Assembly: GCF_027622875.1 (NCBI RefSeq) | Contig: NZ_JAPZVP010000001.1 | Location: 239,142-303,141, forward strand | Direction of reading: 5' to 3' | Source: Glycomyces luteolus | Lineage (GTDB): Bacteria; Actinomycetota; Actinomycetes; Mycobacteriales; Micromonosporaceae | Length of the DNA: 64,000 nucleotides | Part shown: positions 29,903 through 52,564 of the stretch, piece by piece | Numbering within the stretch: position 1 is the stretch's first letter | Layout of the letters: each line of letters starts with the position of its first letter | The notes under the pieces: generated by a model | Seen by the model: the letters and a program-made list of their open reading frames with translations, nothing else | Databases searched by the model: none | Told to the model about the DNA's origin: nothing | Made by a program: the position numbers and the translations under genes

Positions 29903-29941
29903 AGCGATGATGGAGGGCCCGGGCGGCCCTCCATCATCGCT
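29903..29941 (-). terminator. Hairpin terminator of GH42 operon
   Basis: A perfect 16-bp stem (29903-29918 with 29926-29941, arm AGCGATGATGGAGGGC) and a 7-nt loop overlap the last bases of the GH42 stop codon. It has no T-run, but the stem is unusually long. Confidence 0.7.
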
Positions 29942-33906: not shown

Positions 33907-33959
33907 TGCCGCTGCTCCTGTTCGTCGATGTGGCGCCGGTGCCGGGGTGTCATCGTAGC

Positions 33960-33983
33960 GTTTGCGTGATCGCTCACGCAAAC
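33960..33983. promoter_or_regulatory. LacI-type operator 1 (GH42 promoter)
   Basis: 10-bp arms GTTTGCGTGA (33960-33969) and TCACGCAAAC (33974-33983) flank TCGC. It sits inside the spacer of the leftward GH42 promoter, so a bound repressor would block RNA polymerase directly. Confidence 0.82.
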
Positions 33984-34118
33984 GGCGTCGCGCGCTCATG
34001 TCCGCGACATGGTTGCCACTCCAGTGATGGTCCGGTTGGGCGGGTCGGCGCGGATCGCCGCCGCCCGCACTTCGGCCACCCGCGGCGCCGGGGGTTGACA
34101 ACGGTGATACGTTCAGGG

Positions 34119-34136
34119 TGCGTGAGCGCTCACGCA
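34119..34136. promoter_or_regulatory. LacI-type operator 2 (ABC importer promoter)
   Basis: TGCGTGA (34119-34125), GCGC, TCACGCA (34130-34136) form a perfect 18-bp palindrome just after the rightward TTGACA/TACGTT elements and ahead of the sugar-binding protein gene. Confidence 0.82.
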
Positions 34137-34310
34137 AATGGGCTCGCTGGTCCGCTCGCGGACCCCGATCGGCTCGAACCGAGCGAGCGCTCGCTCGACG
34201 CGGAAATGCAATCCAGGATGACGCCAGCGGCGATTCGGCCCCGGCGCGGCGTCCCGAGGTGCGGCAGCAGTGCCCGCCTCTCCGACCCCTACTGAACGAG
34301 GAAAAGCGCA

Positions 34311-35558
34311 ATGAAGCCTTCAATCGCACCCCGGCTCACCCGCCGGTCCCTCGGGCGGATCGCGGCCGCCGCCACGGTCGCCGTCCCCGCCGCCGGAACC
34401 CTGGTCGCCTGCTCCGGCGAGTCCGACCTGAACGCGATCACGTTCCTGTCCTGGGACAACGCCGAGGTGATGGGTCCGGTGATCGAGCAGTTCGAGAAGG
34501 AGAACCCCGACTACCACGTCGAGGCGCAGTATGCGCCGCCCGTGGCCGGTTACATCCAGAAGCTCCAGACGCAGTTGGGCTCGAACAGTGCCCCTGACGT
34601 CTTCATCATCACCGCCGAGAACAAGCACCAGCTCATGGACGGCGGCTTCGTCCAGGACCTCTCCGGCGAGTCCTGGGCCGCCAACCTCAACGAAACGGCC
34701 GCCGCGACCTACACCCAGGACGGCAAGCTCTACGGCTCGGCGATCTCGGCCTGGGCCGGCGGCATGGTCGTCAACCGCGATCTCGTGCCCGGCGACTTCC
34801 CGACCGACTGGGAGGGCTTCATCGAGCTGTGCAAGCAGCTCAAGGCCGACGGCACCGTGGCGTACATGGAGGCCGTCGGCGGCATGACCGACACCTTCTG
34901 CGCCTTCGTCGGCATGCAGAACCTCGCCTACGGCGGGACCATGGACCAGCAGATCTGGGACGGCGACCTCACCTTCGAGGAGGCCTGGACCCCCGCGGCC
35001 CAGGCCTGGTACCGGCTCTTCGAAGAGGGCATCCTCGACTCCTCCGCGGCCGGCATCACCGGCGACCTGGTGCTCCCGGAGTTCCAGCAGAGCCGCCTCG
35101 CCGTCATGACCACCGGCTCGTGGGGGATCAGCGGGATCACCGGCGGCGCACCCGACCTGAACTTCGAGTTCAAGGCCGTGCCCGGATTCGAAGGCCAGCC
35201 CTACTGGTCCGGCGCCGTCTCGCCCGGACTCGCCCTCAACGTGAAGGCGAAGAACCCCGATGCCGCCAAAGTCTTCCTGGAGTGGATGTCCACCGAACCC
35301 GGGGTCAGCTTCTACCAGCGGGCCAACCAGTTTATCTCCACCACAAAGGACTACGAGCCCGAACTGCCCGCCCAGCTCGGCGACCTCGTCCCTGCCGTGC
35401 AGGACGGCCAGTACTACCTGCCCGCGACCAGTTGGATCGACAACAACGACGCCCTCTCCGGCGAGGCGAACGCGCTGGTCCAGCAGCTCGCTACCGGCGA
35501 GATCGAGCCCGTGGACGTCGGGAGGGGACTGGACGCCAAGCTCGCTTCCCTGCAGTGA
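34311..35558 (+). CDS. Sugar ABC transporter binding lipoprotein
   Basis: 415-residue extracellular sugar-binding protein (SBP family 1). The signal sequence has a twin arginine (TRRSLGR, residues 10-16) and a lipobox TLVAC with Cys34, so Tat export of a folded lipoprotein is possible. Mature motifs are ITFLSWDNAEVMGPVIEQFEKENP, SAPDVFIITAENKHQLMDGG and AVSPGLALNVKAKNPDAAKVFLEWMS. GAGGAAA lies 6 nt before ATG 34311. It heads the importer operon, is flanked by arabinofuranosidases and galactosidases, and is behind operator 2. Cargo is probably arabino- or galacto-oligosaccharides. Confidence 0.93.
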   Translation: MKPSIAPRLTRRSLGRIAAAATVAVPAAGTLVACSGESDLNAITFLSWDNAEVMGPVIEQFEKENPDYHVEAQYAPPVAGYIQKLQTQLGSNSAPDVFIITAENKHQLMDGGFVQDLSGESWAANLNETAAATYTQDGKLYGSAISAWAGGMVVNRDLVPGDFPTDWEGFIELCKQLKADGTVAYMEAVGGMTDTFCAFVGMQNLAYGGTMDQQIWDGDLTFEEAWTPAAQAWYRLFEEGILDSSAAGITGDLVLPEFQQSRLAVMTTGSWGISGITGGAPDLNFEFKAVPGFEGQPYWSGAVSPGLALNVKAKNPDAAKVFLEWMSTEPGVSFYQRANQFISTTKDYEPELPAQLGDLVPAVQDGQYYLPATSWIDNNDALSGEANALVQQLATGEIEPVDVGRGLDAKLASLQ

Positions 35559-35628
35559 CAGTCGTGCCGGGGCGGGAACCGCGCACTCGCCCCGGCGCCC
35601 CGCCCCGTCTCAGAGAGGAGACCCCGAC

Positions 35629-36579
35629 ATGGGCAGCACCCTCGCCCCACCCCGGCCCGCGCCGCACCTCCAAAGCGCGCCCCGGCCCACACGCCTTCAG
35701 CGCCTGCGCCGGCGCGGCGTCGAGTCGTACCTGTTCACGCTTCCGGTCATCGTCGTGTTCGTGGTGCTGTTCGCGATCCCGCTGGCGCAGTCGTTCTACT
35801 ACAGCCTCACTGACTTCAACGGCTACTCCACGGAAGCGAACTTCGTCGGCTTCGAGAACTACACCACGATCTGGCGGGACACATCGATGCTCTCCGCGCT
35901 CGGCTTCACCCTGGTCTTCACCGTGGGGACCACCGTGGCCATCACCGTGCTCGCGATCCCGCTCGCCCTCGTGCTCAACCGGAAGTTCTTCGGCCGCAAC
36001 CTCGTCCGCTCGGTGTTCTTCTTCCCATCGGTGGTCAGTGTCGCGATCCTCGGCCTGGTCTGGGGCTTCATCTTCGCCCCGCTCGGCACCGGCGTCATCA
36101 ACTCGATCATCGGCTGGTTCGGCGCCCAGCCGATCGCCTGGCTCGCCGAACCGGACCTCGCCCGGATCAGCGTCGTCGTCGTCGCCGTGTGGGGCGGCAC
36201 CGGCTGGCACGCAGTCCTTTACCTCGCCTACCTCCAGGCGATCCCCTCCGAGTTCTACGAGGCCGCGAGCATTGACGGCGCCTCGCGCCGGCAGCAGTTC
36301 AGGTACGTGACGCTGCCGCTGCTCACCCCCGCGATCACGGTGAGCCAGCTGCTGCTGATCACCGGCGGGCTGAAGGTCTACGACCTGCCGTACACGCTCA
36401 CCGGCGGCGGCCCCGGCTTCGCGACGCGGACGCTGACGCAGTCGATCATCGAGAACGGCATCGCTCAAGGTGAGGCCGGCAAGGCCTCCGCGCTCAGCGT
36501 CGTCTTCTTCGTCGCGGTCGGGCTCATCATCGTCGCCCAGTTGGCTCTCTCCCGCCGAATGGAGGCCCGGTTCTCATGA
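35629..36579 (+). CDS. Sugar ABC permease, MalF-like
   Basis: 316-residue membrane subunit with six helices, the first at VESYLFTLPVIVVFVVLFAIPLAQSF (in parts, about residues 31-56). The EAA loop is EAASIDGASRRQQFRYVTLP. The start is ATG 35629 with AGAGGAG 8 nt upstream; the open frame before it is not protein-like. It ends in an ATGA overlap with the next permease. Confidence 0.94.
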   Translation: MGSTLAPPRPAPHLQSAPRPTRLQRLRRRGVESYLFTLPVIVVFVVLFAIPLAQSFYYSLTDFNGYSTEANFVGFENYTTIWRDTSMLSALGFTLVFTVGTTVAITVLAIPLALVLNRKFFGRNLVRSVFFFPSVVSVAILGLVWGFIFAPLGTGVINSIIGWFGAQPIAWLAEPDLARISVVVVAVWGGTGWHAVLYLAYLQAIPSEFYEAASIDGASRRQQFRYVTLPLLTPAITVSQLLLITGGLKVYDLPYTLTGGGPGFATRTLTQSIIENGIAQGEAGKASALSVVFFVAVGLIIVAQLALSRRMEARFS

Positions 36580-37394
36580 AGCAGCTGCGCAGCATCCTCC
36601 TGAGCGTCGTGATGCTCCCGCTCGCGGGCATCGTCGCGATCCCCTTCTACTACATCCTCGTCAACACGCTCAAGACACAGCCGGAGATCTCCGCGAGCCC
36701 GCTCGGCCTCCCGTCCGGCCTGGACTTCTCCAACTACACCGAGGTCTTCAAAGCGCTCCCGATCTGGCAGTCGTTCCTGAACACGCTGTACGTCGGCGTC
36801 GTCTCAATCGCCCTGATGCTGCTGATCGGCTCGATGGCCGCCTACGGGATGCTCATCGGCCAGGGACGGCTCACCAAGTTCATCGGCGTGATCTGCCTGA
36901 TCGCGTTCCTCGTGCCGGGCCAGACCACACTGATCCCGCTGTACCGCATGCTCTCCGGCATGTACCTCGTGGACACACTGGAGGGCCTGATCGTCCTCTA
37001 CCTGGCGGGCTCGATCTTCTGCTACTTCCTCATCATCGGGTACATGCGGACGATCCCGATGGAGTTGTTCGAGTCAGCCCGAATCGACGGGGCGAGCGCG
37101 TTCCGCATCTACCGGTCGATCGTGCTGCCCCTGATCCGCCCGATCCTGGTCACCGTCGGCGTCTTCCAGGCGATGTGGGTCTGGAACGACTTCATCACCC
37201 CGAACGTGTTCATCAACTCGCCCGACAAGCAGACCCTGGTCCTCCAGGTCTACAGCGCCGTCGGCCAGTTCTCCACCGACTGGCCCGCGTTCATGACGCT
37301 CAGCGTCATCGTGCTCGCGCCGCTGGTCGTCTTCTTCATCGTCGCGCAGCGCCACATCGTCTCCGGTCTCGTGACCGGCAGCGTCAAGGGCTGA
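36576..37394 (+). CDS. Sugar ABC permease, MalG-like
   Basis: 272-residue partner permease. Helix 1 is ILLSVVMLPLAGIVAIPFYYILVN (residues 7-30), and the EAA loop is ESARIDGASAFRIYRSIVLP. Translationally coupled to the upstream permease. The GH51 gene follows 49 nt later, so transport and hydrolysis are probably co-transcribed. As with the operon at 8.7 kb, no ATPase gene accompanies it. Confidence 0.94.
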   Translation: MKQLRSILLSVVMLPLAGIVAIPFYYILVNTLKTQPEISASPLGLPSGLDFSNYTEVFKALPIWQSFLNTLYVGVVSIALMLLIGSMAAYGMLIGQGRLTKFIGVICLIAFLVPGQTTLIPLYRMLSGMYLVDTLEGLIVLYLAGSIFCYFLIIGYMRTIPMELFESARIDGASAFRIYRSIVLPLIRPILVTVGVFQAMWVWNDFITPNVFINSPDKQTLVLQVYSAVGQFSTDWPAFMTLSVIVLAPLVVFFIVAQRHIVSGLVTGSVKG

Positions 37395-37443: not shown

Positions 37444-38934
37444 ATGTTCCAGGCCTCCCTCAAACTGCATCCGGCCTTCACCGTCGGCCCGGTTTCCCGT
37501 CAGGTATTCGGCGGGTTCGTCGAGCACCTCGGCCGCCACATCTACGGCGGCATCTACGAGCCCGGCCACCCCACCGCCGGCCCGGACGGGTTCCGCCGCG
37601 ACGTGGTCGACCTCGTCCGCGAGCTCGGCATCTCGCACGTGCGCTACCCGGGCGGGAACTTCGTGTCCGCCTACGACTGGGAGGACGGCATCGGCCCGGT
37701 CGACCAGCGGCCCCGGCGCCTCGACCCGGCCTGGCACTCGATTGAGACCAACGAGGTCGGCCTCCACGAGTTCGCCGACTGGGCCGACCTCGTCGGCTCG
37801 GAGCTGATGCTGGGCACCAATCTCGGGACCGGGGGGACCCGCGAGACCCTGCACCTCCTCGAGTACGCCAACATCCCCTCCGGCACCACCCGCTCCGACG
37901 CGCGGCGTGAGAACGGCCGCGAGGAGCCCCTCGACGTGCGCTTGTGGTGCCTGGGCAACGAACTCGACGGCGACTGGCAGATCGGGTCGAAGACCGCCGA
38001 GGAGTACGGTCGGCTCGCCGCCGTCACCGCCCGCGCCATGCGCGCGATCGACCAGGACCTCAAGCTCGCCGCCTGCGGTTCCTCCTGGCGGGGCATGCCC
38101 ACCTTCGGAGTCTGGGAGCGGACGGTCCTGGAGCACGCCTTCGACCAGATCGACTACATCTCCTGCCACGCCTACTACCACGAAGTGGACGGCGACGTCG
38201 CGAGCTTCCTCGCCTCCGGTGCGGATATGGACGCCTTCATCGAAAGCGTCGTGCACACGATCGAGCACGTCCGCGCGGTCAAGCGGTCGGACCGCAGGAT
38301 CGACATCTCCTTCGACGAGTGGAACATCTGGTACCAGGCCGGGCAGACGCTCGAACTCGATTCGTGGCCGATCGCCCCCCGCCTGCTCGAGGACCAGTAC
38401 TCCGTCACCGACGCCGTGGTCCTCGGCGGGCTCCTCATCTCGCTGCTCAAACACGCCGACCGCGTCACGGCCGCGAACCTCGCGCAGCTGGTCAACGTGA
38501 TCGCGCCGATCATGACCGAGCCGGGCGGGCCCGCCTGGCGCCAGACCACGTTCTTCCCGTTCGCCACGACCTCACGTCTGGCGACGGGGACCGCGCTGCG
38601 CGGTGTCCTGGACGCACCGGAAGTCTCGACCGCGAAGTTCGGGGACGTGCCCTCCGTCGACGCCGTCGCCACCCTCGACGGCGACCGCGCCGCCGTGTTC
38701 GTCCTCAACCGCTCGATCGACGACACCGCGCAGTTCACGATCGACATCGCCTCCCTTGGCATCGACGGAACCATTCGCGCCCAAGGCATCTGGGACGAGG
38801 ACCGCCACGCGAAGAACACCCTCGACCAGCCCGAGCGCGTGACCCTGCGCGAGAACACCAAGATCAGCCGCGAGAACGGCACGATCACGATCGAGCTTCC
38901 GCCGGTCTCTTGGACCTGCATCACCATCGGCTGA
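37444..38934 (+). CDS. abfA: Alpha-L-arabinofuranosidase, GH51
   Basis: 496-residue intracellular GH51 enzyme releasing terminal alpha-L-arabinofuranose from arabinan, arabinoxylan or arabinogalactan oligosaccharides. The barrel covers about residues 15-380 and a beta-sandwich completes it. The acid/base is Glu173 in WCLGNELDG and the nucleophile is Glu292 in SFDEWNIWY, both canonical. The N-terminus FGGFVEHLGRHIYGGIYEPGH is the GH51 signature. There is no signal peptide. ATG 37444 has AGGAAA upstream. Length equals the usual bacterial AbfA, so this is one of the safest calls in the locus. Confidence 0.96.
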   Translation: MFQASLKLHPAFTVGPVSRQVFGGFVEHLGRHIYGGIYEPGHPTAGPDGFRRDVVDLVRELGISHVRYPGGNFVSAYDWEDGIGPVDQRPRRLDPAWHSIETNEVGLHEFADWADLVGSELMLGTNLGTGGTRETLHLLEYANIPSGTTRSDARRENGREEPLDVRLWCLGNELDGDWQIGSKTAEEYGRLAAVTARAMRAIDQDLKLAACGSSWRGMPTFGVWERTVLEHAFDQIDYISCHAYYHEVDGDVASFLASGADMDAFIESVVHTIEHVRAVKRSDRRIDISFDEWNIWYQAGQTLELDSWPIAPRLLEDQYSVTDAVVLGGLLISLLKHADRVTAANLAQLVNVIAPIMTEPGGPAWRQTTFFPFATTSRLATGTALRGVLDAPEVSTAKFGDVPSVDAVATLDGDRAAVFVLNRSIDDTAQFTIDIASLGIDGTIRAQGIWDEDRHAKNTLDQPERVTLRENTKISRENGTITIELPPVSWTCITIG

Positions 38935-38948
38935 GCGAAGAAGGGGAA

Positions 38949-39899
38949 ATGATGATGAGCGCTATTCCGAAACCGCTGTTCCGCGACCCGATCCACGACG
39001 GGGCCGCCGACCCCACCGTGATCTGGAACCGGGCCTTCGGCGAGTGGTGGATGTTCTACACCAACCGGCGGGTCTGGTCGCCGCCGTTCGACGATGTGTC
39101 CTGGGTGTTCGGCACCGACATCGGCATCGCCTCCTCTGAGGACGGCGGGGCGACGTGGGTCCACCGCGGCATCGCGGAAGGCCTGGAGACCGGCTGGGGC
39201 CGCAACACGTTCTGGGCGCCTGAGATCATCGACGACGGCGAGACCTACCACATGTACGCGAGCTGCATCGAGGGCGTCCATTCGCGGTGGGGGGCTGAAG
39301 GACTGATCCGCCACTACACCAGCGAGGACCTCGCACACTGGGAGTACCAGTCCACGCTGGACCTCGATTCGAGGCAGGTCATCGACGCGTGCGTCTTCCC
39401 GCTCTCCGAGGGCGGCTGGCGCATGTGGTTCAAGGACAGTTCACGCGGTTCGCACACCTACACCGCCGACAGCCCCGACCTCTACCAGTGGCGACCGACC
39501 GGGCCCGCCATCGAGAACCGCCCGCATGAAGGGCCGAACGTCTTCGCGCTCGGCGGCTCGTACTGGATGCTCACCGACGAGTGGGCCGGCCTGCGGGTCC
39601 ACCGTTCCGATGATCTGCGCGCCTGGGAGATCCAGGGCCGCATCCTCGCCGAGTCCGGCTCGGGTGCCGACGACGGCGGCAACGGGCTCCACGCCGATGT
39701 GGTCGTCGTCGGCGAGGACGCGTTCGTCTTCTACTTCACCCATCCCGGGCGCGTCCCCGGCGAGCGGATCCGCGACGACCTCTACGAACACCGGCGCACC
39801 TCGATCCAGGTGGCGCGGGCGCATGTAGTAGACGGGCGGCTGGTGTGCGATCGGGACAAGGTGCTGACTGCGCCCATCCTGCCGCCAGGCGGGCCGTGA
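38949..39899 (+). CDS. GH43-like beta-propeller glycosidase
   Basis: 316-residue protein with the five-bladed beta-propeller pattern of GH43/GH117-like enzymes. GAADPTVIW near residue 22 offers the general-base Asp, FWAPEII near 92 is the typical second-blade motif, and ENRPHEGPNVF near 200 offers the acid Glu. There is no signal peptide. ATG 38949 is the first of three consecutive ATG codons, with AAGGGG just upstream. It is in line with abfA (14 nt gap) and convergent with the LacI gene (11 nt). It probably acts on arabinose- or galactose-containing oligosaccharides; exact family number and substrate are uncertain. Confidence 0.78.
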   Translation: MMMSAIPKPLFRDPIHDGAADPTVIWNRAFGEWWMFYTNRRVWSPPFDDVSWVFGTDIGIASSEDGGATWVHRGIAEGLETGWGRNTFWAPEIIDDGETYHMYASCIEGVHSRWGAEGLIRHYTSEDLAHWEYQSTLDLDSRQVIDACVFPLSEGGWRMWFKDSSRGSHTYTADSPDLYQWRPTGPAIENRPHEGPNVFALGGSYWMLTDEWAGLRVHRSDDLRAWEIQGRILAESGSGADDGGNGLHADVVVVGEDAFVFYFTHPGRVPGERIRDDLYEHRRTSIQVARAHVVDGRLVCDRDKVLTAPILPPGGP

Positions 39900-39910: not shown

Positions 39911-40912
39911 TCAGGCGGATTCGCGCCAGAGGATCGGCAGCGCCGTGCGTCGACGCTCGGCGCTGTCCCCGGCGCCGTCCAAAGCCTCCCCGATGACGTC
40001 GGCGATCTGCTCGGCGAATGCGGTACCCAGTATCGCCAGGGTGGTGAGCGCGGGGGAGGTGACGGCGCCGAGCGACAGCCCGTCGACGCCGACAAGTCGG
40101 ACCTGTCCTGGCACGTCGATGCCGCGGCGGTGGGCGGCCCTCAGTGCGCCCATCGCCATGAGGTCGCTGAAGGCGATTACGGTGTCGGTTTCGGGGAAGC
40201 GGTCCATGAGGTCGTTGAAGCCGAGTTCGCCGGCGTCCACGGACTGCGGCGGGGCCTCGCAGACGACCACCGCTTCGGCCGACACCGGGTCGACCGCGTC
40301 CTCATAGGCGATCCGGCGAGTGCTCGGCTTGTAGACCGTGCCGAGCGGCTGGCTCTCCAGCAACCCGAACCGCTTCGAACCGCGCTTCCGCAGCTCGTCC
40401 ACGAGGTGGGCGAAGGCGGGACCGAAGTCGAAGTCGACCGAGTGGAGACCTTCGCTGGTAGCAGTGCGGCCCAGAAGGACCAACGGGACACCGCGGGCAG
40501 CCGCGGCCAACGCCGCCTCGTCCGTCTCGCCGAGATAGCCGACGACCGCGTCGACCTGGTTCGCGAGGCGGCTGATCAGCTGGAGCTCCGGTTCGTCCTC
40601 GTGCGAGACGATCGTCATCTGCCAGCCGCGTGCCGACGCGGCGTCGAGCAGGTCGGCGGCGAGCTCGGAGTAGTAGGGGTTGCGGAACGAATCGACGACG
40701 AAAGCGATCGTCTTCGTCTTGCTCGTCCGGGCCAGGTTCGACGCAAAGCGGCTGGGGCGGTAGCCGAGCCGCTCGCTGATCTCAAGGATGCGGGCGCGCG
40801 TCGCTTCGCTGATCCGCGGCATCCCGTTCATCGCCCGGGTCACGGTCTGCCGGGAGACTCCAGCCTCGCGGGCGATGTCCTCGATCGTTACACGTCGCTG
40901 CATATTCCCCAT
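39911..40912 (-). CDS. LacI family repressor of the locus
   Basis: 333-residue LacI/GalR regulator. The HTH is VTIEDIAREAGVSRQTVTRAMN (in parts, residues 8-29), the hinge helix RPSRFASNLAR (about 52-62), and the effector domain starts TKTIAFVVDSFRNPYYSELAADLL. ATG 40912 is used; ATG 40903 three codons on is also possible. It sits inside the arabinose/galactose locus, convergent with the GH43-like gene and divergent from the long GH51 gene. It is the only LacI-family gene in the window, and three LacI-type palindromes of one sequence lie in this locus, so it is the natural candidate to bind them. Confidence 0.92.
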   Translation of the reverse strand: MGNMQRRVTIEDIAREAGVSRQTVTRAMNGMPRISEATRARILEISERLGYRPSRFASNLARTSKTKTIAFVVDSFRNPYYSELAADLLDAASARGWQMTIVSHEDEPELQLISRLANQVDAVVGYLGETDEAALAAAARGVPLVLLGRTATSEGLHSVDFDFGPAFAHLVDELRKRGSKRFGLLESQPLGTVYKPSTRRIAYEDAVDPVSAEAVVVCEAPPQSVDAGELGFNDLMDRFPETDTVIAFSDLMAMGALRAAHRRGIDVPGQVRLVGVDGLSLGAVTSPALTTLAILGTAFAEQIADVIGEALDGAGDSAERRRTALPILWRESA

Positions 40913-40927
40913 TATCCCCGTCGATGC

Positions 40928-40943
40928 CGTTCCGGTCGGAACG
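40928..40943. promoter_or_regulatory. Palindrome between LacI and GH51 genes
   Basis: CGTTCCG (40928-40934), GT, CGGAACG (40937-40943) form a perfect 7-2-7 palindrome 16 nt upstream of the LacI start. Its sequence differs from the TGCGTGA operators, so it may serve another regulator or an autoregulatory mode. Confidence 0.5.
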
Positions 40944-41013
40944 CGGTTTCACCCCACAGCCGGAAGCGGCGCCGCCGCAGACGGTCCTGTACCAACTGCC
41001 CAGGAAGGCAACC

Positions 41014-43287
41014 ATGAACGACCGAATCGCCGTCCGCGTCGGTGCCGCGACCGCCGACACCGCCCCCGACCTGTGGGGCCTGTTCATCGAAGACCTCAAC
41101 GACGCCCTTGACGGCGGGCTGAACGCCGAACTCATCCGCAACGGCGACTTCGAGTTCGACCCGTCCGAGCGGAACGACTTCCACCACCTCACCGGATGGG
41201 CCACGGAGGGCCCTGTCCAGGTGCGGACCGGATCCCCGCTGCACCCGAACAACCGCCACTACGCGTCACTCATCGGCCCGGCCGCCATCGCCAACAGCGG
41301 CTGGTACGGCATCAGCGTGACCAAAGGGAAGCGACTGCGGCTGTCCCTGTTCGCCCGCGTGACCGAGCAGACCCGCCTGGCCGTGACCCTTGGCAACGGC
41401 CTCGCGAGCACCGATCTCGACGTCGAGCCCGGCGGATGGCACTACCTGGAAGCCGACCTCGCTCCGACCGCGACGGGGTGCGGCGAACTGCGGATCGCCG
41501 TGCCCGCCGGAGCCGACGCCGACCTCGACGCCGTCACCCTGCGGCCCCTCGCCGACGACGGCTCGCCCCTGACCTTCCGGCCAGACCTGCTCCAAGCCTT
41601 GAAGGACCTGGCCCCGAGCTTCATCCGCTTCCCCGGCGGCTGCCTCGCCCACGGCTACGGCCTCGGCAACATCTACCACTGGAAGGACACCATCGGACCC
41701 CGATGGAGGCGAGCGCAGACGCGGAACATCTGGGCCTACCATCAGTCCCGGCAGATCGGCTACGGCGAGTATTTCGAGCTGTGCGAAGCCCTCGGCGCCA
41801 CCGCGATCCCCATCGTCGCCGCCGGCGTCTGCTGCCAGAACTCGCCCGGCGGCCAGCACGCGATCCCAGAATCGCAGATGAAGGACTACATCCAGGACGT
41901 GCTCGACCTGATCGAGTTCGCCAACGGCGGACCTGAAACGCGCTGGGGCGCGAAACGGGCCGAACACGGGCACCCCGAGCCATACGGGCTGCGGTACCTC
42001 GGCCTCGGCAACGAGGACGAGATCACCGACGCGTTCCGAAACCGGTACGCCCGCATCGAGGACGCCGTCCGCGAAGCCCACCCCGAGATCACCGTCATCG
42101 GCACCTCCGGACCGTGCACCACCGGCCCCGACTTCGAGGCCGGCTGGCAGTACGCGCGAGAGCGCGGCGTCGCGATGGTCGACGAGCACGGCTATCAGAA
42201 CCCCCGCTGGTTGCACCAGAACCTCGACCGCTACGCCGCCTACGACCCCGACGGGCCCAAGGTCTACCTCGGCGAATACGCGGGCTGCTCCAGCACGGTG
42301 CGTTCGGCGCTCGCCGAGGCGGCGTACATGATCGGCCTCGAACGCAACCCCGACGTCGTGCGCCTCGCCTCCTACGCCCCGCTCCTCGCCCGCGTCGGGC
42401 ACTCGCAATGGACCCCTGACCTCATCTACTTCACCGCCGACGAGGTGCGCCTCACCGCCTCCTACTACGTGCAGCGCGCGTTCGGCACCGAGCGAGGCGA
42501 GCGGGTTCGCGCAGTCGAACTCGAAGGCGTGGTGCCGTGGACCCGGCCCGTCGCGGGAACCGGCGAGGCGCACGTGCACTCGCCTCGGGCCACTGTGGCC
42601 TTCAGCGATGTCGTGTTCGACGGGCGACCGGTCCCCGACTACGCCACCGTCCCCGGAATCGACGGCGCGGTTCTCGCAGCGATCGGCCCCGACGCCGCCG
42701 ACATCGAGTTCACCGCGGTCCGACGGGACGGCAGCGATGGCTTCTCACTGCGACTGGGCCCAGACGACCCGTCGAGTTCCGTGAAGTTCAACTTCTGCAT
42801 GGGCGGCAACCGCAACACCGTGGTGTTCCGCCGCGATGACGGGATCGACAACTGGGAGGCGACCCGCCCGTGGCCCGAGTGGGGCGACGGCGTCCCCGTC
42901 CGAGTGCGGGTCCGCCTCGACGGGCCGCGCCTCCGGGTCTGGGTCGACGGCGAACTTCACCACGACCTCGAACTCGACACCCGGCCCGAACACCGCGTCG
43001 CCGCGGGGGCGCTCTCGCGCACCGCGGCAGACGGCGGGACTGAGTACGTGGTGAGGCTCGTCAACGCCGAGGATACCGAGAAGCCCGTCCGCGTCGACCT
43101 CGACGACGCGCCCGGCCCAGTCGCGGCCGACATCGAGCTCCTGGCCGGGGCCGGACCCGACGAGGGCGCACTCTTCGAGGCGTCCCCGATCCGACCGGTC
43201 ACCGAGAAAGCCAAGGGCGAGAACGGGATCGACCTGATCCTGCCGCCCTGGTCGTTCGCCTCGGCGATAGTTCGCCCCTCGGCTTAG
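41014..43287 (+). CDS. Large GH51 arabinofuranosidase with accessory domains
   Basis: 757-residue GH51-type enzyme, about 250 residues longer than abfA. Residues 1-180 include a carbohydrate-binding-like beta domain (LNAELIRNGDFEF, then WHYLEADLAPTATGCGELRIAV). The barrel follows with the acid/base Glu334 (GLGNEDEIT) and nucleophile Glu421 (VYLGEYAGCSS). From about 545 a laminin-G/DUF1080-like domain (SSVKFNFCMGGNRNTVVFRRD) is inserted before the C-terminal strand. There is no signal peptide. The start is ATG 41014 with AGGAAGG; the frame is open to 40924 without signals. It is divergent from LacI. It may act on larger or differently branched arabinosides than abfA. Confidence 0.9.
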   Translation: MNDRIAVRVGAATADTAPDLWGLFIEDLNDALDGGLNAELIRNGDFEFDPSERNDFHHLTGWATEGPVQVRTGSPLHPNNRHYASLIGPAAIANSGWYGISVTKGKRLRLSLFARVTEQTRLAVTLGNGLASTDLDVEPGGWHYLEADLAPTATGCGELRIAVPAGADADLDAVTLRPLADDGSPLTFRPDLLQALKDLAPSFIRFPGGCLAHGYGLGNIYHWKDTIGPRWRRAQTRNIWAYHQSRQIGYGEYFELCEALGATAIPIVAAGVCCQNSPGGQHAIPESQMKDYIQDVLDLIEFANGGPETRWGAKRAEHGHPEPYGLRYLGLGNEDEITDAFRNRYARIEDAVREAHPEITVIGTSGPCTTGPDFEAGWQYARERGVAMVDEHGYQNPRWLHQNLDRYAAYDPDGPKVYLGEYAGCSSTVRSALAEAAYMIGLERNPDVVRLASYAPLLARVGHSQWTPDLIYFTADEVRLTASYYVQRAFGTERGERVRAVELEGVVPWTRPVAGTGEAHVHSPRATVAFSDVVFDGRPVPDYATVPGIDGAVLAAIGPDAADIEFTAVRRDGSDGFSLRLGPDDPSSSVKFNFCMGGNRNTVVFRRDDGIDNWEATRPWPEWGDGVPVRVRVRLDGPRLRVWVDGELHHDLELDTRPEHRVAAGALSRTAADGGTEYVVRLVNAEDTEKPVRVDLDDAPGPVAADIELLAGAGPDEGALFEASPIRPVTEKAKGENGIDLILPPWSFASAIVRPSA

Positions 43288-43481: not shown

Positions 43482-45155
43482 ATGACACCATTCGACCTAG
43501 GCCGCCTCGCCCGGCGACCCCTCCTCAAAGGCGCCGCTGTCACTGGCGGCCTGGCTCTCGCCGGACTCGGCAGCCTCGCTTTCGACTCGGCGCAGAACGC
43601 CGAGGCCCAGACGGCCGGCATCCAGGCCGTCAGCCACCCGGCGATGCTGCACACCCAGCCCGACCTCGACTACATCGCGGCGAAAGTCGCCGCCGGCGCC
43701 GAGCCCTGGCTCGCCGGCTGGAACAAGCTGGCGGCCAGCTCGCACTCGCAGAGCACCCGGACCCCCAGCGCCACCTCCGTCATCACGCGCGGAGGCTCCG
43801 GCACCCAGAACTACCCGGTGCTCTACAGGGACGTCCACGCCGCCTATCAGAACGCGCTGCGCTGGCGCATCGCCGGCACGACCGCCAACCGCGACGCCGC
43901 CGTCGCGATCTGCAACGCGTGGTCGTCGACGTTGACCGAGATCAACGGCAGCACCGACGCGCTGCTGTGCGCCGGGCTCCAGGGCTACCAGTTCGCGAAC
44001 GCCGCCGAATTGCTGCGCGGCGCCCCGGGCTTCGACCTCGGCGCGTTCCAGAACATGATGATGGACGTCTTCCATCCTCTGACCACCGGTTTCCTGGGCA
44101 GCCACAACGGGACCTGCGCGACCCACTACTGGGCGAACTGGGACCTGGCCGCGATGAACGCTGTGCTCGCAACCGGCATTCTCTGCGACGACGACACGAT
44201 CATCGACCAGGCGATCGACTACTTCTGGAACGGCGTCGGCAACGGCTCCATCCGGGGCGCGATCCCCTTCACCCACGACGACGGCCTCGCGCAGTGGCAG
44301 GAGTCCGGCCGCGACCAGGCCCACACCATCCTCGGCATCGGGCTCATGGCCACGTTCATGGAGACGGCCTGGAACCAGGGGATCGACCTCTATTCGGCCG
44401 ACGACAACGCGTTCGCCAAGGTCGCCGAGTACGTCGCCTCCTACAACCTCGGCAACAACGTCCCCTACACGACCTACAGCTGGGGCTCGGGCAACAATTG
44501 CGCCTACAACGAGCAGACGGTCATCGGCAGCGGTGGGCGCGGCAGCGTGCGGCCGGTGTGGGCGATGGTCTACGGCCACTACCACTCCCGGCGCGGCATC
44601 GAGATGCCGAACACGGCCGCGATCGCCGCCTCGATCGATCCGGAAGGAGGCGGCGGCGATTACGGCTCGACCTCCGGCGGATACGACGCTCTCGGGTACG
44701 GCACACTCCTGTATTCCCGCGACCGGACCACGGTGCCCTACAACCGGATCCAGTCCTACAACTTCCAGACCCGGTATTGGCGCCACGTCGGCTTCGCCGC
44801 GGGCGTCGCGGAGAACGCGAGCCCCGCGGCGGACACCTGGTTTCAGGTGTCCTCAGGCCTGGCCGACCGCGCCGACGACTGCGTCTCGTTCGAGTCGGTC
44901 AACCTCCCCGGCTACTACCTGCGCGTGAACGACACGGTCCTCAAGCTGGAAGAGAACGACGGCTCGGCGCAGTTCGCCAAGGACGCCACATTCCGCACGG
45001 TCGCCGGCCTCGCGGACTCGGCCTGGACCTCGTTCCAGCTCTACGGCGATTCCAGCCTGCATGTGCGCCACGCGTACAACATCCTCCGGACCGCCGTGGT
45101 CCCTAGCGGCGACAGCGTCGGCAAGGCCGACGCCACCTTCCGGATCACGAGCTGA
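43482..45155 (+). CDS. Tat-exported toroid lyase with CBM42
   Basis: 557-residue exported protein. The Tat signal is RRPLLKGAAVTGGLALAGLG (residues 11-30). Residues 50-370 are an alginate-lyase-like (alpha/alpha) toroid: Asn-Trp near 219 in HYWANWDL and GRDQAH at about 276-281 mark the family active-site region. Residues ~462-557 are an AbfB-type (CBM42) arabinofuranose-binding module (SFESVNLPGYYLRVND, FAKDATFRTVAGL). The start is ATG 43482 with AAAGGAG (43471-43477) 4 nt before it; ATG 43464 is an alternative without a ribosome site. Binding to arabinofuranose side chains while cleaving a uronate-containing backbone is inferred. Which polysaccharide lyase family it belongs to is not certain. 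Confidence 0.82.
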   Translation: MTPFDLGRLARRPLLKGAAVTGGLALAGLGSLAFDSAQNAEAQTAGIQAVSHPAMLHTQPDLDYIAAKVAAGAEPWLAGWNKLAASSHSQSTRTPSATSVITRGGSGTQNYPVLYRDVHAAYQNALRWRIAGTTANRDAAVAICNAWSSTLTEINGSTDALLCAGLQGYQFANAAELLRGAPGFDLGAFQNMMMDVFHPLTTGFLGSHNGTCATHYWANWDLAAMNAVLATGILCDDDTIIDQAIDYFWNGVGNGSIRGAIPFTHDDGLAQWQESGRDQAHTILGIGLMATFMETAWNQGIDLYSADDNAFAKVAEYVASYNLGNNVPYTTYSWGSGNNCAYNEQTVIGSGGRGSVRPVWAMVYGHYHSRRGIEMPNTAAIAASIDPEGGGGDYGSTSGGYDALGYGTLLYSRDRTTVPYNRIQSYNFQTRYWRHVGFAAGVAENASPAADTWFQVSSGLADRADDCVSFESVNLPGYYLRVNDTVLKLEENDGSAQFAKDATFRTVAGLADSAWTSFQLYGDSSLHVRHAYNILRTAVVPSGDSVGKADATFRITS

Positions 45156-45222
45156 CCCGCGATTACGGTCGGGCCCGTGATCGCGGGCCCGACCGCCCGC
45201 CCTGCAATGAAAGGAACCTCTC

Positions 45223-48200
45223 TTGAGAACCAAAGTCGCGGTACCGCGGCCGAGTCGCCTGCCGGCACTCGCCGCTGCGGCCGCCATAGCCGCGGGGATG
45301 CTCGCCGCACCCCCGCAGGCGGTGCAGGCCGCCGAGTACGAGGACCTCATCACCGACAACGTCGTGGTGATCAACGAGACCGTGTCCGACGCCGGGTTCG
45401 TCCACCCCGGTGTGGGCCTGTCGGCGGAGGATCTGCGCAACGCGCAGGAGATGGTCCGCTCGAACCAGGAGCCGTGGGCCTCCTACTTCGATGCCATGAC
45501 CGCCACCGGTTTCGCGTCGACGACCTACCGGGCCTCGAACTCGAAGTCGGCCGCTGAACCCGACAAGGCGCTCACCGACACCTACGTGCAGGGCGGCATG
45601 CGCACCCGCCAGCGGAACGACTCGTTCGGTTCGCTGACCCAGTCGCTGATGTGGGTCATGACCGGCGACGAGGTGTACCGGCGCAACGCGGTCCAGTCCC
45701 TGCGGGCTTGGGCCGACATGAACCCCGAGGGGTACGCGTACTTCCCTGACGCGCACATCCACACCGGGCACCCGCTCTACCAGCACCTCATGGCCGCCGA
45801 GATCATTCGCGCCACCGAGCCGCTCGCCGACGACACGCCGGGGACCTACAACGGCTATGACGTGGTGTGGAGCGATCAGGACGATGCGAACCTGCTCGGC
45901 AACTATGCGAATCCGGTCGTCGATGTCTTCAACTTCTCCAACAAGAAGTGGATGAACCAGCACAACTTCGGGTTGTTCGGGCGCATCGCGACCGCGATCT
46001 ACGCGGACGACGCCGAGGGCTACGCCAAGGGCGTCGAGTGGACCACGGTGAACTCGACGTATGACGGCTACGACAACGGCGCGATCGCCCCGCAGATCCC
46101 GCTCATTGAAGCCGATGACCCGGCGAACCCCTACGGGTACGACTTCGTGCAGGTCCGCGAGATGGGCCGCGACCAGGCCCACGGCGAGTGCAACATCGAC
46201 AACTTCACCGCCCTGGCGCGGATGCTCGAAGTCCAGGGCACCAAAGTCGACCCCGACGCCGGGACGGTCTCGACCGCCTCGGACGCGGTGAGCGCCTATG
46301 ACTTCCTCGACCAGCGGCTCCTCGATGGTGCGAACCAGTTCTTCGGGTTCATGCTGGGATCGCGGATCCCCTGGGCCGACGAGCGCGGCGAGGGCTGGGA
46401 CGGCAGTGTCTCCGAGGCGTACCGGGGCCGGATGTTCAACCCGGTCAACGAGCTGTATTACGAGTACCGGTACGAGCGCGGCGTCGACGTCGAGACCGAA
46501 GCGCCCTGGGTGGCCGAGCTGTCGAACCGTATGGACGGCCCGTACTTCTACGGGGGGACCGCCGTCGCGAACTTCTGGGCCGCGGGCGACAAGAACCCCG
46601 AGTACTGGGTCGCGTTCCCCGAGGAGCTGGCCGGGACCACCCCGAAGCCGCTGCCCGGGAATGCGGCGCTGACCTTTGAGAAGGCCGGGCTGCTGCTCGA
46701 CGACAGCACCGAGATGGTGACCGAGGACGGCGCCACGTTCGCGCGCGCCTCGCTCTCCGAGACCGGCACGACCAGCGTCGTCAGCCGCGTGATGTGGGGC
46801 GGGCAGACCTTGCTGGGCCTGAAGTACCGCAGTGACGGGCCTGCGAGTCTCGAAGTGCTGCAGAAGGAGGACCCCTCGGGGATCAACCCGGACGAGTACG
46901 ACTTCGATCCGATCGTGCCGTCGATGGAGCTGCCGGACACGGGCGGCGAATGGCGTTACGTGGCCTACCCGGCGGGCGGTCAGAACGTACACTTCTATCG
47001 CCTCAAGGGCGCCGAAGGCACCACCGTGGACCTGCACAGCGTGATCCTCACCGCCGCGAAGGACCTGACCGCACCGCAGTTCACGCAGGCCGACGACCGC
47101 TTCTACTTCACGGAGCGGAACGAGAAGTCGATCGACCTGTCCGCCGTCGACACCGGGGGAAACGTGGCTTACAGGGCCGCCGGTCTGCCCGAAGGAGCGT
47201 CGCTCGGCGCCGCGACCGGCGAACTGACCTGGAAACCCGCTGACGGCCAGTCCGGCCGCTACGAGGTCCAGGTCATCGCCGACGACGGCCAGACGGTTGC
47301 CGCCCGCACCTTCACGTTGGCGGCCTCCAAGAACCGCGCGAAGACCATCGATGCCGTCCTCGCGGACGGCACCTTGAGCTTCGCGGTCTACACGACGGTC
47401 ACGCACGAGCCGTTCCTCGCGGCGCTCCACGAGGCCAAGAACGTGCCCGAGGGAGCTTCGCAGGAGGAGTTCGAGGCGGCGCTCACCAAGCTGCTCGCCG
47501 CTGTCGACGCCCTGCGGCTGCTCAACCCGCATCTGGAGGACGGCACGCTGGACTTCGGCGACGGGGTGGTCACTCCGACCGTGATCTCGCCCGCGGCGGT
47601 GGACCTCCTCGCCAGCGAGGGCAGCGACGGAGGCATTCCGAACCTGCTCGTGGCATCCTTCGTGCTCGACTTCGGACCCCAGTACCGGGTCGCCGCCGAC
47701 TCCTTCGGTTTCCTGGCCAACTTCACGTTCGGGAACCGGATGGAGGGCACCAATGTGTACGGCTCGAACGACGGCATCACCTGGGACCTCCTGACCGAGC
47801 GGGACACCGAGAACACCAACAAGTGGGACACCATCGGCGTCGTCGAGGAGCATCGGGGAGAGCAATACCGCTACCTGAAGCTCCAGGTCGACAACCCCGG
47901 CATCGCGACCGACCCGGCCTATCCGGGCCTGTGGTGCTTCCAGCGGTTCCGCATCGACGGCATCCGCTCTGAGGTCAAGGGCGACATCGACACCGTGTCG
48001 GTGACCTCCCCGGACGCGCTCGCGCGCCGCGTCACCGAGGGCGACGACGTCACGGTCGCCTTCTCCAGCCCCACCGCGATCTCGGACGTCGAAGTGACCG
48101 TGGGCGGCCAGACGCTGCCAGCGACCAGCGAAGACGGCCTGTCATGGAGTGCGACCGGAGCGCTCGGAGCGCTCGAGGGCGGAGGACCGCTCGACATCGC

Positions 48201-49509
48201 GATCGATCACACCACCACGAAGGGCCAGATTGCCGAGACGATCCACGGAACGACCGACGGCACGTACCTCTACGGGGCCGATGAGTCGAACCTGATCGAC
48301 TTCGCCCATTTCCAGGTCGTAGGTGCCTCCGGTGAGGCCGATACGGCGAAGTCCGCTCAGGCCTCGCTCATGCTCGACGGCAGCGCCTCCACGCAGAGCA
48401 GCGTGCCCGCAGTGGACGGGCAGTTCCACCTGATCTGGGACTTCGGGGCCGGCTCGAGCGTCGCTCTGGACCGGATCGACTACCTTGCCGCGCAGAACAA
48501 CAACGGCATGGTCCGCATGCCCGATCTGGTCTTCCAGGGCTCTGACGACCTTGAGCACTGGACGACCATCGCCGAGCAGCCGTTCAAGACCATGTCGTGG
48601 CAGAACCTGGAGGCGACCGACACCGGAAACTACCGCTACCTGCGGGTCAGCAGCAGCACCTACATCGACATCGCCGAGTTGCGCGTCTTCGGCGACCTTC
48701 ACCTCGACCTCGACCCGGTCATCGCCCGCGCCGAAGCGGTCGACCTGACCGCTTACTCGCGGGCTTCGGCGATCCTGTTCACCCGTGAGCTGGGGGCCGT
48801 CAAGGCCGCTGCGGCCGAGGACGGTGCGGACGAGACCGTGCTCGCACTTCGGCTCCTGGACGCCTGGGACCTGCTCGAACCGTCGGCGACCCGGATCGCC
48901 GCGACCCTCGACCCGTCTTGGGTGACGGCCAGCTCGGTGTCCTGGGACGGCAAGCGGGACGCGGCCGCCAACGGCTGGGCCATGTTCGACGGGAACACCG
49001 GCACGTTCACGGACACCAAGACAGCGGCAGGCTGGGTCTCGGTCATCCCGACCGACGGCACTGCCTTCTCGGTCGAAGCCGTCAAGTACTACCCGCGTTC
49101 GGGGTTGACCGTCCGCGCCAGCAACGTTGACCTCCAGGGCTCCAACGACGGCGGCGCGACCTGGACGACCTTCGCCAGTACCGGCACCGCCGTTGCGGGC
49201 TGGAACACGGTGAACCTGGCCGAGGCGGTGCGGTACGAGGAGCTGCGCGTCAGCGGGGCCGACGGCTTCACCAACTTCGCCGAAGTCCAGTTCCTGGTCC
49301 ACGCGATCGACAAGACCGGCCTCGATCTCTACCTGTCAGAGAGCGAGGCGCTGAACCAGACCGACTGGACGTCCGACTCCTGGGCCGTATTCACCACCGC
49401 CCGCGACAACGCCCGAACCGTCTCCGACGACAAGGGCGCCACCCAGAAGGAGGTGGACACCGCCGCCGACGCGCTCGCCGACGCGCTCGACGCACTTGTC
49501 GAGTCCTGA
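45223..49509 (+). CDS. Giant secreted multidomain lyase
   Basis: 1428-residue secreted enzyme. A Sec signal peptide ends near residue 36 (AVQA|AEY). Residues 55-480 form a second alginate-lyase-like toroid with WMNQHNFG (about 243-250) and GRDQAH at 315-320, the same motif as the upstream protein. Then come a beta-sandwich (to ~610), a putative Ig domain (~618-700), a FIVAR-like helical repeat (~705-765), F5/8-type-C-like modules near 780-920, 1025-1165 and 1220-1360, and a second FIVAR-like end (~1365-1428). The modules suggest surface- or polymer-bound action. The start is TTG 45223 behind AAAGGAA, so translation is probably modest. It is co-transcribed with the previous lyase (67 nt gap). 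Confidence 0.85.
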   Translation: MRTKVAVPRPSRLPALAAAAAIAAGMLAAPPQAVQAAEYEDLITDNVVVINETVSDAGFVHPGVGLSAEDLRNAQEMVRSNQEPWASYFDAMTATGFASTTYRASNSKSAAEPDKALTDTYVQGGMRTRQRNDSFGSLTQSLMWVMTGDEVYRRNAVQSLRAWADMNPEGYAYFPDAHIHTGHPLYQHLMAAEIIRATEPLADDTPGTYNGYDVVWSDQDDANLLGNYANPVVDVFNFSNKKWMNQHNFGLFGRIATAIYADDAEGYAKGVEWTTVNSTYDGYDNGAIAPQIPLIEADDPANPYGYDFVQVREMGRDQAHGECNIDNFTALARMLEVQGTKVDPDAGTVSTASDAVSAYDFLDQRLLDGANQFFGFMLGSRIPWADERGEGWDGSVSEAYRGRMFNPVNELYYEYRYERGVDVETEAPWVAELSNRMDGPYFYGGTAVANFWAAGDKNPEYWVAFPEELAGTTPKPLPGNAALTFEKAGLLLDDSTEMVTEDGATFARASLSETGTTSVVSRVMWGGQTLLGLKYRSDGPASLEVLQKEDPSGINPDEYDFDPIVPSMELPDTGGEWRYVAYPAGGQNVHFYRLKGAEGTTVDLHSVILTAAKDLTAPQFTQADDRFYFTERNEKSIDLSAVDTGGNVAYRAAGLPEGASLGAATGELTWKPADGQSGRYEVQVIADDGQTVAARTFTLAASKNRAKTIDAVLADGTLSFAVYTTVTHEPFLAALHEAKNVPEGASQEEFEAALTKLLAAVDALRLLNPHLEDGTLDFGDGVVTPTVISPAAVDLLASEGSDGGIPNLLVASFVLDFGPQYRVAADSFGFLANFTFGNRMEGTNVYGSNDGITWDLLTERDTENTNKWDTIGVVEEHRGEQYRYLKLQVDNPGIATDPAYPGLWCFQRFRIDGIRSEVKGDIDTVSVTSPDALARRVTEGDDVTVAFSSPTAISDVEVTVGGQTLPATSEDGLSWSATGALGALEGGGPLDIAIDHTTTKGQIAETIHGTTDGTYLYGADESNLIDFAHFQVVGASGEADTAKSAQASLMLDGSASTQSSVPAVDGQFHLIWDFGAGSSVALDRIDYLAAQNNNGMVRMPDLVFQGSDDLEHWTTIAEQPFKTMSWQNLEATDTGNYRYLRVSSSTYIDIAELRVFGDLHLDLDPVIARAEAVDLTAYSRASAILFTRELGAVKAAAAEDGADETVLALRLLDAWDLLEPSATRIAATLDPSWVTASSVSWDGKRDAAANGWAMFDGNTGTFTDTKTAAGWVSVIPTDGTAFSVEAVKYYPRSGLTVRASNVDLQGSNDGGATWTTFASTGTAVAGWNTVNLAEAVRYEELRVSGADGFTNFAEVQFLVHAIDKTGLDLYLSESEALNQTDWTSDSWAVFTTARDNARTVSDDKGATQKEVDTAADALADALDALVES

Positions 49510-49524
49510 CCACCCTGGAAATGA

Positions 49525-49552
49525 GAGCCCGGGCGCTGCGGCGCCCGGGCTC
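49525..49552 (+). terminator. Terminator of the lyase operon
   Basis: A perfect 12-bp stem (49525-49536 with 49541-49552, GAGCCCGGGCGC and its complement) and a TGCG loop begin 15 nt after the stop. The T-run is weak (TCCTAC). Confidence 0.72.
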
Positions 49553-52475: not shown

Positions 52476-52564
52476 GAAACCGGCGCTCGGTCTGCGACGA
52501 AGTCGGGGACTCGGTGCTGTAGCAAGCCGGCGGGCCGTCCCCGATGGAGTCGCGGACCGGGCCG

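What the first reader, a model, noticed from the sequence alone, without database searches (positions are those of the whole stretch)
43482..49509. Paired exported toroid lyases inside an arabinose/galactose locus
Two adjacent exported proteins share a GRDQAH-containing alginate-lyase-like toroid. One has a C-terminal CBM42 arabinofuranose-binding module; the other is 1428 residues with FIVAR-like and F5/8-C-like modules. They travel with GH42, GH51 and GH43-like enzymes rather than alginate genes. A lyase acting on glucuronate-capped arabinogalactan or another arabinose-decorated acidic glycan would explain the set. I know of no description of this exact pair.
Basis: partly seen in the sequence, partly recalled or inferred. 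Interest (0 to 1): 0.72.

Follow-up and report, generated by a model that had tools for sequence, protein, structure and literature searches.

The report
Paired lyase-fold enzymes for plant arabinogalactan
A soil bacterium exports two related ring-shaped enzymes, built like known acid-sugar lyases but with altered catalytic residues, beside genes for taking up and digesting arabinose- and galactose-rich plant material; what they cut is not yet proven.

Summary

Both belong to branches that differ from PL5 and PL38. PL38-type proteins keep NNH and ExxR..HY (120 of 120). P1 relatives have NWD and ExxRDQxH (120 of 120); P2 relatives have NQH (48 of 51) and ExxRDQxH (50 of 51). The Tyr motif is absent in both; P1 also has Asp where the His aligns.

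Of 79 P2 loci, 36 hold a D-2-hydroxyacid dehydrogenase-type gene, 35 a GH36 resembling a beta-L-arabinopyranosidase of arabinogalactan side chains, and 4 of 5 Kribbella loci a mannonate dehydratase. The own genome lacks GH88/GH105.

Best reading: P2 is an exported lyase-like enzyme for uronate-bearing arabinogalactan-type side chains, and P1 its arabinofuranose-tethered partner. Activity is untested. Another P2-P1 pair in this genome sits with xyloglucanase-type genes, so the glycan may vary.

The parts
29940..31964 (-). GH42 beta-galactosidase-type protein
   Evidence: PF02449 8.4e-72
32002..34329 (-). second GH42 (ORF start probably too early)
   Evidence: PF02449 2.6e-156
34311..35558 (+). 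ABC sugar-binding protein
   Evidence: PF01547 1.6e-25
35566..36579 (+). ABC permease 1
   Evidence: PF00528 4.4e-19
36576..37394 (+). ABC permease 2
   Evidence: PF00528 5.7e-16
37444..38934 (+). GH51 ArfA-type alpha-L-arabinofuranosidase
   Evidence: NF051901 660.9 bits, over cut-off 625
38934..39899 (+). GH43-like protein (start uncertain)
   Evidence: PF04616 3.1e-9, 37.1 bits, cut-off 32.2
39911..40912 (-). LacI-type regulator
   Evidence: PF00356 5.5e-16
40924..43287 (+). second, 787-aa GH51-type arabinofuranosidase
   Evidence: PF22848 2e-80
43482..45155 (+). P1: exported 557-aa protein, toroid plus CBM42
43629..44726 (+). P1 toroid domain (residues 50-415)
44103..44108 (+). P1 His208-Asn209, ten residues before NWD; possible stand-in for the lyase His
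   Evidence: 62 and 60 of 63 rows; HN there in 116 of 120 hits
44136..44144 (+). P1 Asn219-Trp220-Asp221, aligned with NQH of P2
   Evidence: 63 of 63 in A3; NWD in 120 of 120 hits; alignment
44301..44324 (+). P1 E274-SG-R277-D278-Q279-A-H281 (ExxRDQxH)
   Evidence: 63 of 63 at E, R, D, Q, H; 120 of 120 hits
44745..45146 (+). P1 CBM42 (AbfB) module, residues 422-555
45167..45194 (.). perfect 11-bp inverted repeat between P1 and P2 (6-base loop), no T run; role unknown
   Evidence: read from the sequence; not in the terminator scan
45223..49509 (+). P2: exported 1428-aa multimodular toroid protein
45370..46647 (+). P2 toroid domain (residues 50-475)
45955..45963 (+). P2 Asn245-Gln246-His247 (NQH)
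   Evidence: N and Q 39 of 39, H 38 of 39; NQH in 48 of 51 hits
46159..46182 (+). P2 E313-MG-R316-D317-Q318-A-H320 (ExxRDQxH)
   Evidence: 39 of 39 at E, R, D, Q, H; 50 of 51 hits
46660..47061 (+). P2 beta-sandwich resembling CBM35 (residues 480-613)
47119..47319 (+). P2 He_PIG (Ig-like) module
   Evidence: PF05345 2.5e-9
48925..49263 (+). P2 F5/8 type C module, best of two stretches
   Evidence: PF00754 2.7e-13
49303..49503 (+). P2 C-terminal FIVAR-like module
   Evidence: PF07554 25.2 bits, cut-off 29.2; NF047897 local match at residues 1361-1427
49525..49552 (.). 12-bp inverted repeat just after P2, no T run; possible transcript end
   Evidence: read from the sequence; not in the terminator scan

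Best explanation
The window holds a plant-glycan locus of a Glycomyces. P2 is an exported enzyme with a polysaccharide-lyase toroid and several carbohydrate-binding-type modules. I think it cleaves at a uronate, most likely glucuronate, in the side chains of arabinogalactan-type polysaccharide, by beta-elimination with His247 as base, a Gln/Asn neutraliser and a non-canonical acid (His320 or another invariant residue) instead of the PL5/PL38 Tyr. P1 is a second toroid enzyme, held on arabinofuranosyl decorations by CBM42, working on the same material. The ABC importer takes in the oligosaccharides; GH42, GH51 and the GH43-like enzyme finish them under the LacI regulator. Shown: genes, modules, predicted folds, motif differences, recurring partners. 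Inferred: beta-elimination, the uronate, the arabinogalactan substrate, the division of labour, the regulation.
Against: No activity data. The Tyr motif is absent from both, and P1 has Asp where P2 has the His, though a nearly invariant His208 lies ten residues before. The own genome has no PF07470 match, and 13 of 18 genomes tested have none over cut-off. The window has no 2-hydroxyacid dehydrogenase of that cluster, and some cluster members are only 24-37% identical to the own-genome copy. The GH36s stay below the NCBIfam cut-off of 1100, and two of this type lie elsewhere in the genome, outside the fetched P2 regions (L130, L131). Another P2-P1 pair in this genome sits with BNR (GH74-like), GH12, GH5-CBM46 and GH29 genes, which suggests xyloglucan. 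28 of 79 loci carry no GH or PL1 gene that I labelled. The CBM35 resemblance is a common sandwich fold.
Confidence: 0.45

Rival explanations
1. P1 is not a lyase but an Asp-based hydrolase of the same fold that works on what P2 releases, replacing the missing GH88/GH105.
For: Asp221 and Asp278 are invariant in 63 of 63 rows; Asp221 aligns with the P2 His and Asp278 lies at or near the Tyr position. No PF07470 match in this genome. P1 and P2 neighbours in four genera.
Against: No sequence link to GH88/105; the register of the two Asp to PL38 is uncertain; His208 is nearly invariant and could still serve as base. In two of three Streptomyces regions no sugar genes were seen by eye beside P1. 72 of 79 P2 loci show no P1 in the fetched flanks.
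Confidence: 0.1
2. Same enzymes, different glycan: xyloglucan (acidic or fucosylated), RG-I/RG-II or another fucose/arabinose-rich acidic polysaccharide.
For: Own C1:440 kb pair with BNR (GH74-like), GH12, GH5-CBM46 and GH29; GH95 in 3, GH28 in 6 and PL1 in 5 of 79 loci; GH29 in L027; P1 copies beside GH29 and GH2 on C3 and near GH127 on C9.
Against: The window locus and the P2-linked GH36 fit arabinogalactan better. Paralogues may differ in substrate, so both can be true.
Confidence: 0.27
3. Ordinary alginate or glucuronan lyases (PL5/PL38 members).
For: PF05426 match of P1 and the fold.
Against: NNH and ExxR..HY, each in 120 of 120 PL38-type hits, are replaced; the PL38 and PL5 profiles align with P1 at about 1% and 0.1% only; no alginate genes among the neighbours scanned.
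Confidence: 0.06
4. A non-eliminating toroid function such as C5-epimerase, or a binding protein without catalysis.
Against: Charged motif residues are invariant; sugar-degradation loci and dehydrogenase partner.
Confidence: 0.1

Closest known systems
PL38 (BoPL38, 8BDQ; PF05426)
   Different: His297-Tyr298 motif replaced by RDQxH; NNH replaced by NQH (P2) or NWD (P1); extra modules; no alginate setting seen.
PL5 (A1-III, Smlt1473)
   Different: No HY motif; no full-length sequence match.
PL17/PL39 alginate lyases
   Different: About 11% identity; different C-terminal part; no Tyr near RDQxH.
PL27 and PL42 rhamnose-glucuronate lyases of gum arabic
   Same: Proposed kind of substrate: glucuronate in arabinogalactan.
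   Different: PL27 has an N-terminal beta-sandwich and C-terminal barrel, the reverse order (PMC8377490, passages); PL42 has a His-His-Asp site (PMC13169297, passages).
Bifidobacterium GH39/GH36 AGP side-chain clusters (AAfase, BAD_1528)
   Same: GH36 of the BAD_1528 type beside an exported enzyme and an ABC importer (PMC10688797, passages).
   Different: The exported enzyme is a GH39 hydrolase there, a lyase-fold protein here; no 2-hydroxyacid dehydrogenase in the passages seen.

Membership tests
PL38 | NNH (neutraliser Asn and base His243) | tested here: not met
   120 of 120 PL38-type hits have NNH; P2 hits NQH in 48 of 51, P1 hits NWD in 120 of 120. NNH occurs in 13 of 120 P1 hits, 11 of them 12 residues before ANWD, so a shifted register cannot be fully excluded for P1. 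Role of H243 from PMC13169297 passages.
PL38 | E-x-x-R followed by HY (Tyr298) | tested here: not met
   120 of 120 PL38-type; 0 of 120 P1; 0 of 51 P2. Y298F is seen as HY to HF.
PL38 | (alpha/alpha) toroid fold | tested here: met
PL38 | Activity on alginate or glucuronan | not testable with these tools
   needs assay
PL5 | HY with catalytic Tyr (Y246 in A1-III) | tested here: not met
   at most 2 Tyr in any column from R-3 to R+15 in A3 (63 rows) and A4 (39 rows)
PL5 | Curated model NF001469 cut-off | tested here: not met
   P1 16.4 bits, cut-off 366; P2 not listed at E <= 0.1
PL27 | N-terminal beta-sandwich then toroid | tested here: not met
   P2 has the toroid first; PL27 order from PMC8377490 passages
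CBM42 | AbfB domain over gathering cut-off | tested here: met
CBM42 | Binding of arabinofuranose | not testable with these tools
   not assayed
BAD_1528-type GH36 (partner gene in P2 loci) | NF053652 equivalog cut-off | tested here: not met
   7 of 7 P2-linked GH36 scanned at 520-587 bits, cut-off 1100; canonical GH36 87 bits
Any existing CAZy PL family | Membership by CAZy HMM | not testable with these tools
   CAZy models not on hand

The most novel reading that the evidence does not exclude
P1 and P2 found two new toroid families that form a two-step, GH88-free route. P2 eliminates at a uronate in arabinogalactan without the Tyr catalyst. P1, with Asp where P2 has the lyase His and another Asp at or next to the Tyr site, is a lyase-derived hydrolase that removes the unsaturated sugar. 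The D-2-hydroxyacid dehydrogenase reduces the resulting 5-keto-4-deoxyuronate, a 2-oxo acid, inside the cell in place of KduI.
Probability: 0.07. Interest if true: 0.85.

Novelty: new variant of a known kind. Interest (0 to 1): 0.54.

Why it matters
PF05426 labels thousands of proteins 'alginate lyase' (3806 P1 relatives at E <= 0.001 among 7999 scored candidates), yet every one of the 120 P1 relatives inspected, and 50 of 51 P2 relatives, carries a different motif where PL38-type proteins have the catalytic His-Tyr. The label is probably wrong for them. If P2 cuts arabinogalactan at uronates it would add a lyase route outside PL27/PL42 for glycans such as gum arabic, and the dehydrogenase link would point to an unknown way of using the product. 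Both are directly testable with recombinant proteins.

Tried and rejected
Alginate/glucuronan lyase membership: rejected on motifs. PL27: rejected on domain order. PDB sequence search: no lyase at E <= 1 with single P1 or P2; the full P2 alignment and the P2 domain alignment gave only a 30- to 31-residue stretch of PL38 at E 0.033 and 0.15; P1 alignments gave no lyase. GH88/GH105: no PF07470 match in this genome. KduI (PF04962): one match in this genome, which may be the related IolB (recalled), so not used. Streptomyces P1 neighbourhoods: read by eye, no sugar genes in two of three; gave no substrate clue. Promoter/terminator scan: 1 and 2 sites against 0.6 and 2.9 in shuffles. Papers: searches for CBM42 with alginate lyase, Glycomyces with polysaccharide lyase (no paper), gum arabic/arabinogalactan lyases, PF05426, PL38, and 2-hydroxyacid dehydrogenase with polysaccharide lyase listed no paper that, by title or abstract start, describes these two branches; only open-licence PMC text is held, and most listed papers were not opened. 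Passages only were seen of PMC8377490, PMC11381880, PMC10688797, PMC8424115 and PMC13169297; passages and one section of PMC12088678.

Corrections: I took cluster c2 for permeases and one search counts it under 'perm'; one search shows D-2-hydroxyacid dehydrogenases, so use. Cluster labels rest on one or a few Pfam-scanned members, or on BLAST to window genes. The register of P1/P2 to PL38 is uncertain: single-sequence phmmer puts Asp on the Tyr, hhalign puts Arg on Arg and shifts NQH by two, and P1 aligns with PL38 at only 1.1%. Both leave no Tyr there. On checking I found that P1 keeps His-Asn ten residues before NWD (116 of 120 hits), so I lowered the hydrolase rival from 0.12 to 0.10 and the novel case from 0.08 to 0.07. 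The 79 loci are the best 80 kept of 285, so counts lean to close relatives and to Glycomyces (21) and Microbacterium (18); genera were assigned by me from record titles. The P1 hits counted are the best 120 of 3806.
Full report
WHAT IS THERE. Two exported genes lie 67 bp apart on the + strand: P1 (43482-45155, 557 aa, ATG behind AAAGGAG, an RR in the signal region) and P2 (45223-49509, 1428 aa, TTG behind AAAGGAA). P1 has PF05426 (1.9e-12) and AbfB/CBM42 (1.6e-32). In P2 PF05426 is only 14.9 bits (cut-off 22.2); F5/8C (2.7e-13, two stretches) and He_PIG (2.5e-9) pass, and FIVAR is just below cut-off. Upstream lie two GH42, a sugar-binding protein, two permeases, a GH51 of ArfA type (660.9 bits, cut-off 625), a weak GH43-like protein, a LacI regulator and a second GH51. 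Perfect inverted repeats without T runs follow each gene (45167-45194, 49525-49552; read). The closest named P1 relatives are Glycomyces proteins (81-84%). In G. dulcitolivorans (L009) GH42, SBP, both permeases, ArfA, the GH43-like gene, LacI, P1 and P2 follow in the same order at 80-94% identity; the second GH51 gives no hit, and the contig stretch begins at the GH42.

CATALYTIC MOTIFS. Rows: the best 120 P1 hits (of 3806 with E <= 0.001 among 7999 scored), all 51 P2 hits and the best 120 hits (of 1554) of a Streptacidiphilus PL38-type protein, L108, itself matching 3nfv at 6.4e-69 and BoPL38 at 2.2e-55. PL38-type: NNH 120 of 120; E-x-x-R-x(4-6)-HY 120 of 120. P1: NWD 120 of 120; ExxRDQxH 120 of 120; ExxR..HY 0. 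P2: NQH 48 of 51; ExxRDQxH 50 of 51; ExxR..HY 0. In alignments A3 (63 rows) and A4 (39 rows) no column from R-3 to R+15 holds more than 2 Tyr. BoPL38 uses Tyr298 and His243 to abstract H5 (PMC13169297, passages); mutant chains show the Tyr and His motifs of PL38 and PL5. So P2 keeps a His in N-x-H but lacks the Tyr; P1 lacks the Tyr and has Asp221 where P2 has the His. P1 does keep a nearly invariant His208-Asn209 ten residues before NWD (62 and 60 of 63 rows; 116 of 120 hits), which might act as base. The register to PL38 is uncertain: phmmer of a paralogue puts Asp/Thr on Tyr246, while hhalign aligns R316 of P2 with the Arg of PL38 (79.9%, E 1.4e-5) and P1 not usefully (1.1%). P1 and P2 are related to each other (99.9%, E 1.2e-31). 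All 8 PF05426 matches of the own genome are P1-type, 7 with NWD and RDQxH, one (L001, 1523-aa frame) with NWD and ESGRTQAY. The own genome has four P2-type copies (100, 71, 65 and 38% identity).

SPREAD. P2-type full-length matches (E below 1e-200) were found in 6 of 101 genomes drawn from the same family, five of the window's genus counting itself; 25 others have weak, partial matches. The P1 domain matched in 8 of 197 genomes drawn from the phylum, three genera.

GENOMIC CONTEXT. A scan of genome contigs gave 285 relatives of P2; the best 80 were kept, 79 loci. Neighbours within 10 kb, by BLAST cluster: D-2-hydroxyacid dehydrogenase-type in 36 of 79 (31 within 2 kb), in ten genera; GH36 in 35 of 79, in seven genera; GH43 (two clusters) in 26 of 79. 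Of the 39 dehydrogenase genes 6 were scanned, all PF02826; identity to the own-genome copy runs from 24 to 88%, and the 24-37% ones may be other subfamilies. I first took this cluster for permeases. The own genome has 6 strong PF02826 matches in 5.74 Mb, G111 8 in 4.0 Mb, so about 0.03-0.05 are expected in a 25-kb stretch; loci of one genus are not independent. One of the six lies beside the P2 copy on C10 (L125); none of this cluster is in the window; one lies beside a P1-type pair in a Streptomyces (L126). Seven of seven P2-linked GH36 scanned (of 38 in the cluster) score 520-587 bits to the BAD_1528 beta-L-arabinopyranosidase model (cut-off 1100), a canonical GH36 of the own genome 87, and two other own-genome GH36s, outside the fetched P2 regions, 597 and 545. 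PMC10688797 (passages) reports BAD_1528 as a GH36 beta-L-arabinopyranosidase and links its group to beta-L-Arap-(1->3)-L-Ara released from gum arabic and larch AGP. Four of 5 Kribbella loci have a gene of the mannonate dehydratase cluster (one scanned: 665 bits, cut-off 550), and L074 a fructuronate-reductase-like gene (303 bits, cut-off 603). GH95 is in 3, GH28 in 6 and PL1 in 5 of 79; 28 of 79 show no labelled GH or PL1 gene.

P1-P2 PAIRING. P1-like genes lie within the fetched flanks in 7 of 79 P2 loci, in Glycomyces (4), Promicromonospora, Myceligenerans and Pseudoduganella; some loci are cut by contig ends. The own genome has a second pair at C1:440 kb, next to BNR/sortilin-type (GH74-like, recalled), GH12, GH5 with CBM2, X2 and CBM46, and GH29 genes, a xyloglucan-type set. 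So the pair is not tied to one glycan.

UNSATURATED URONATES. PF07470 (GH88/105): no match in the own genome; 9 of 18 genomes with a match, 5 of 18 over cut-off, 2 of these 5 Duganella/Pseudoduganella. UxaC: 13 of 18, own included. PF04962: 17 of 18, unclear because the family also holds IolB (recalled). The classic lyase clean-up enzymes are thus missing in this genome, where toroid proteins are abundant. This argues against an ordinary oligouronide pathway, or for another one; the D-2-hydroxyacid dehydrogenase is a candidate because 5-keto-4-deoxyuronate is a 2-oxo acid (established chemistry; the link is inference).

JUDGEMENT. The families differ from PL5 and PL38 in tested catalytic features, so I do not file them there. 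I saw no description in the searches named under Tried and rejected; CAZy could not be consulted.

Noticed in passing
own genome G000:C1:430000-449492 (L123): Second P2-P1 pair in a locus with BNR (GH74-like), GH12, GH5-CBM2-X2-CBM46, GH29, esterase-ricin and LacI genes: a xyloglucan-type set.
   Followed up: partly
own genome G000:C2:107739-112862 (L120:9740-14863): Three P1-type genes in tandem; no sugar genes recognised by eye around them.
   Followed up: no
own genome C3 (L121:9221-15840) and Streptomyces L126:5537-10697: A very large divergent P1-type protein (ESGRTQAY in the own genome) next to an ordinary P1; the arrangement recurs in a Streptomyces.
   Followed up: partly
L081:12936-13505, L086:13071-13664: A short, probably exported protein family (cluster c19, 6 loci) directly after P2 in Duganella and Pseudoduganella.
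   Followed up: no
window 50958-52124: Protein resembling MSMEG_1130-family ribosome hibernation factors (182 bits, cut-off 480).
   Followed up: no
window 26653-29424 (-): 923-aa ORF with a C-terminal CHAT domain (PF12770 1.1e-35).
   Followed up: no
window 52426-53616 and 53658-54551: An endonuclease/exonuclease/phosphatase-family protein (PF03372 2.1e-13) followed by a neighbour that looks similar by eye.
   Followed up: no
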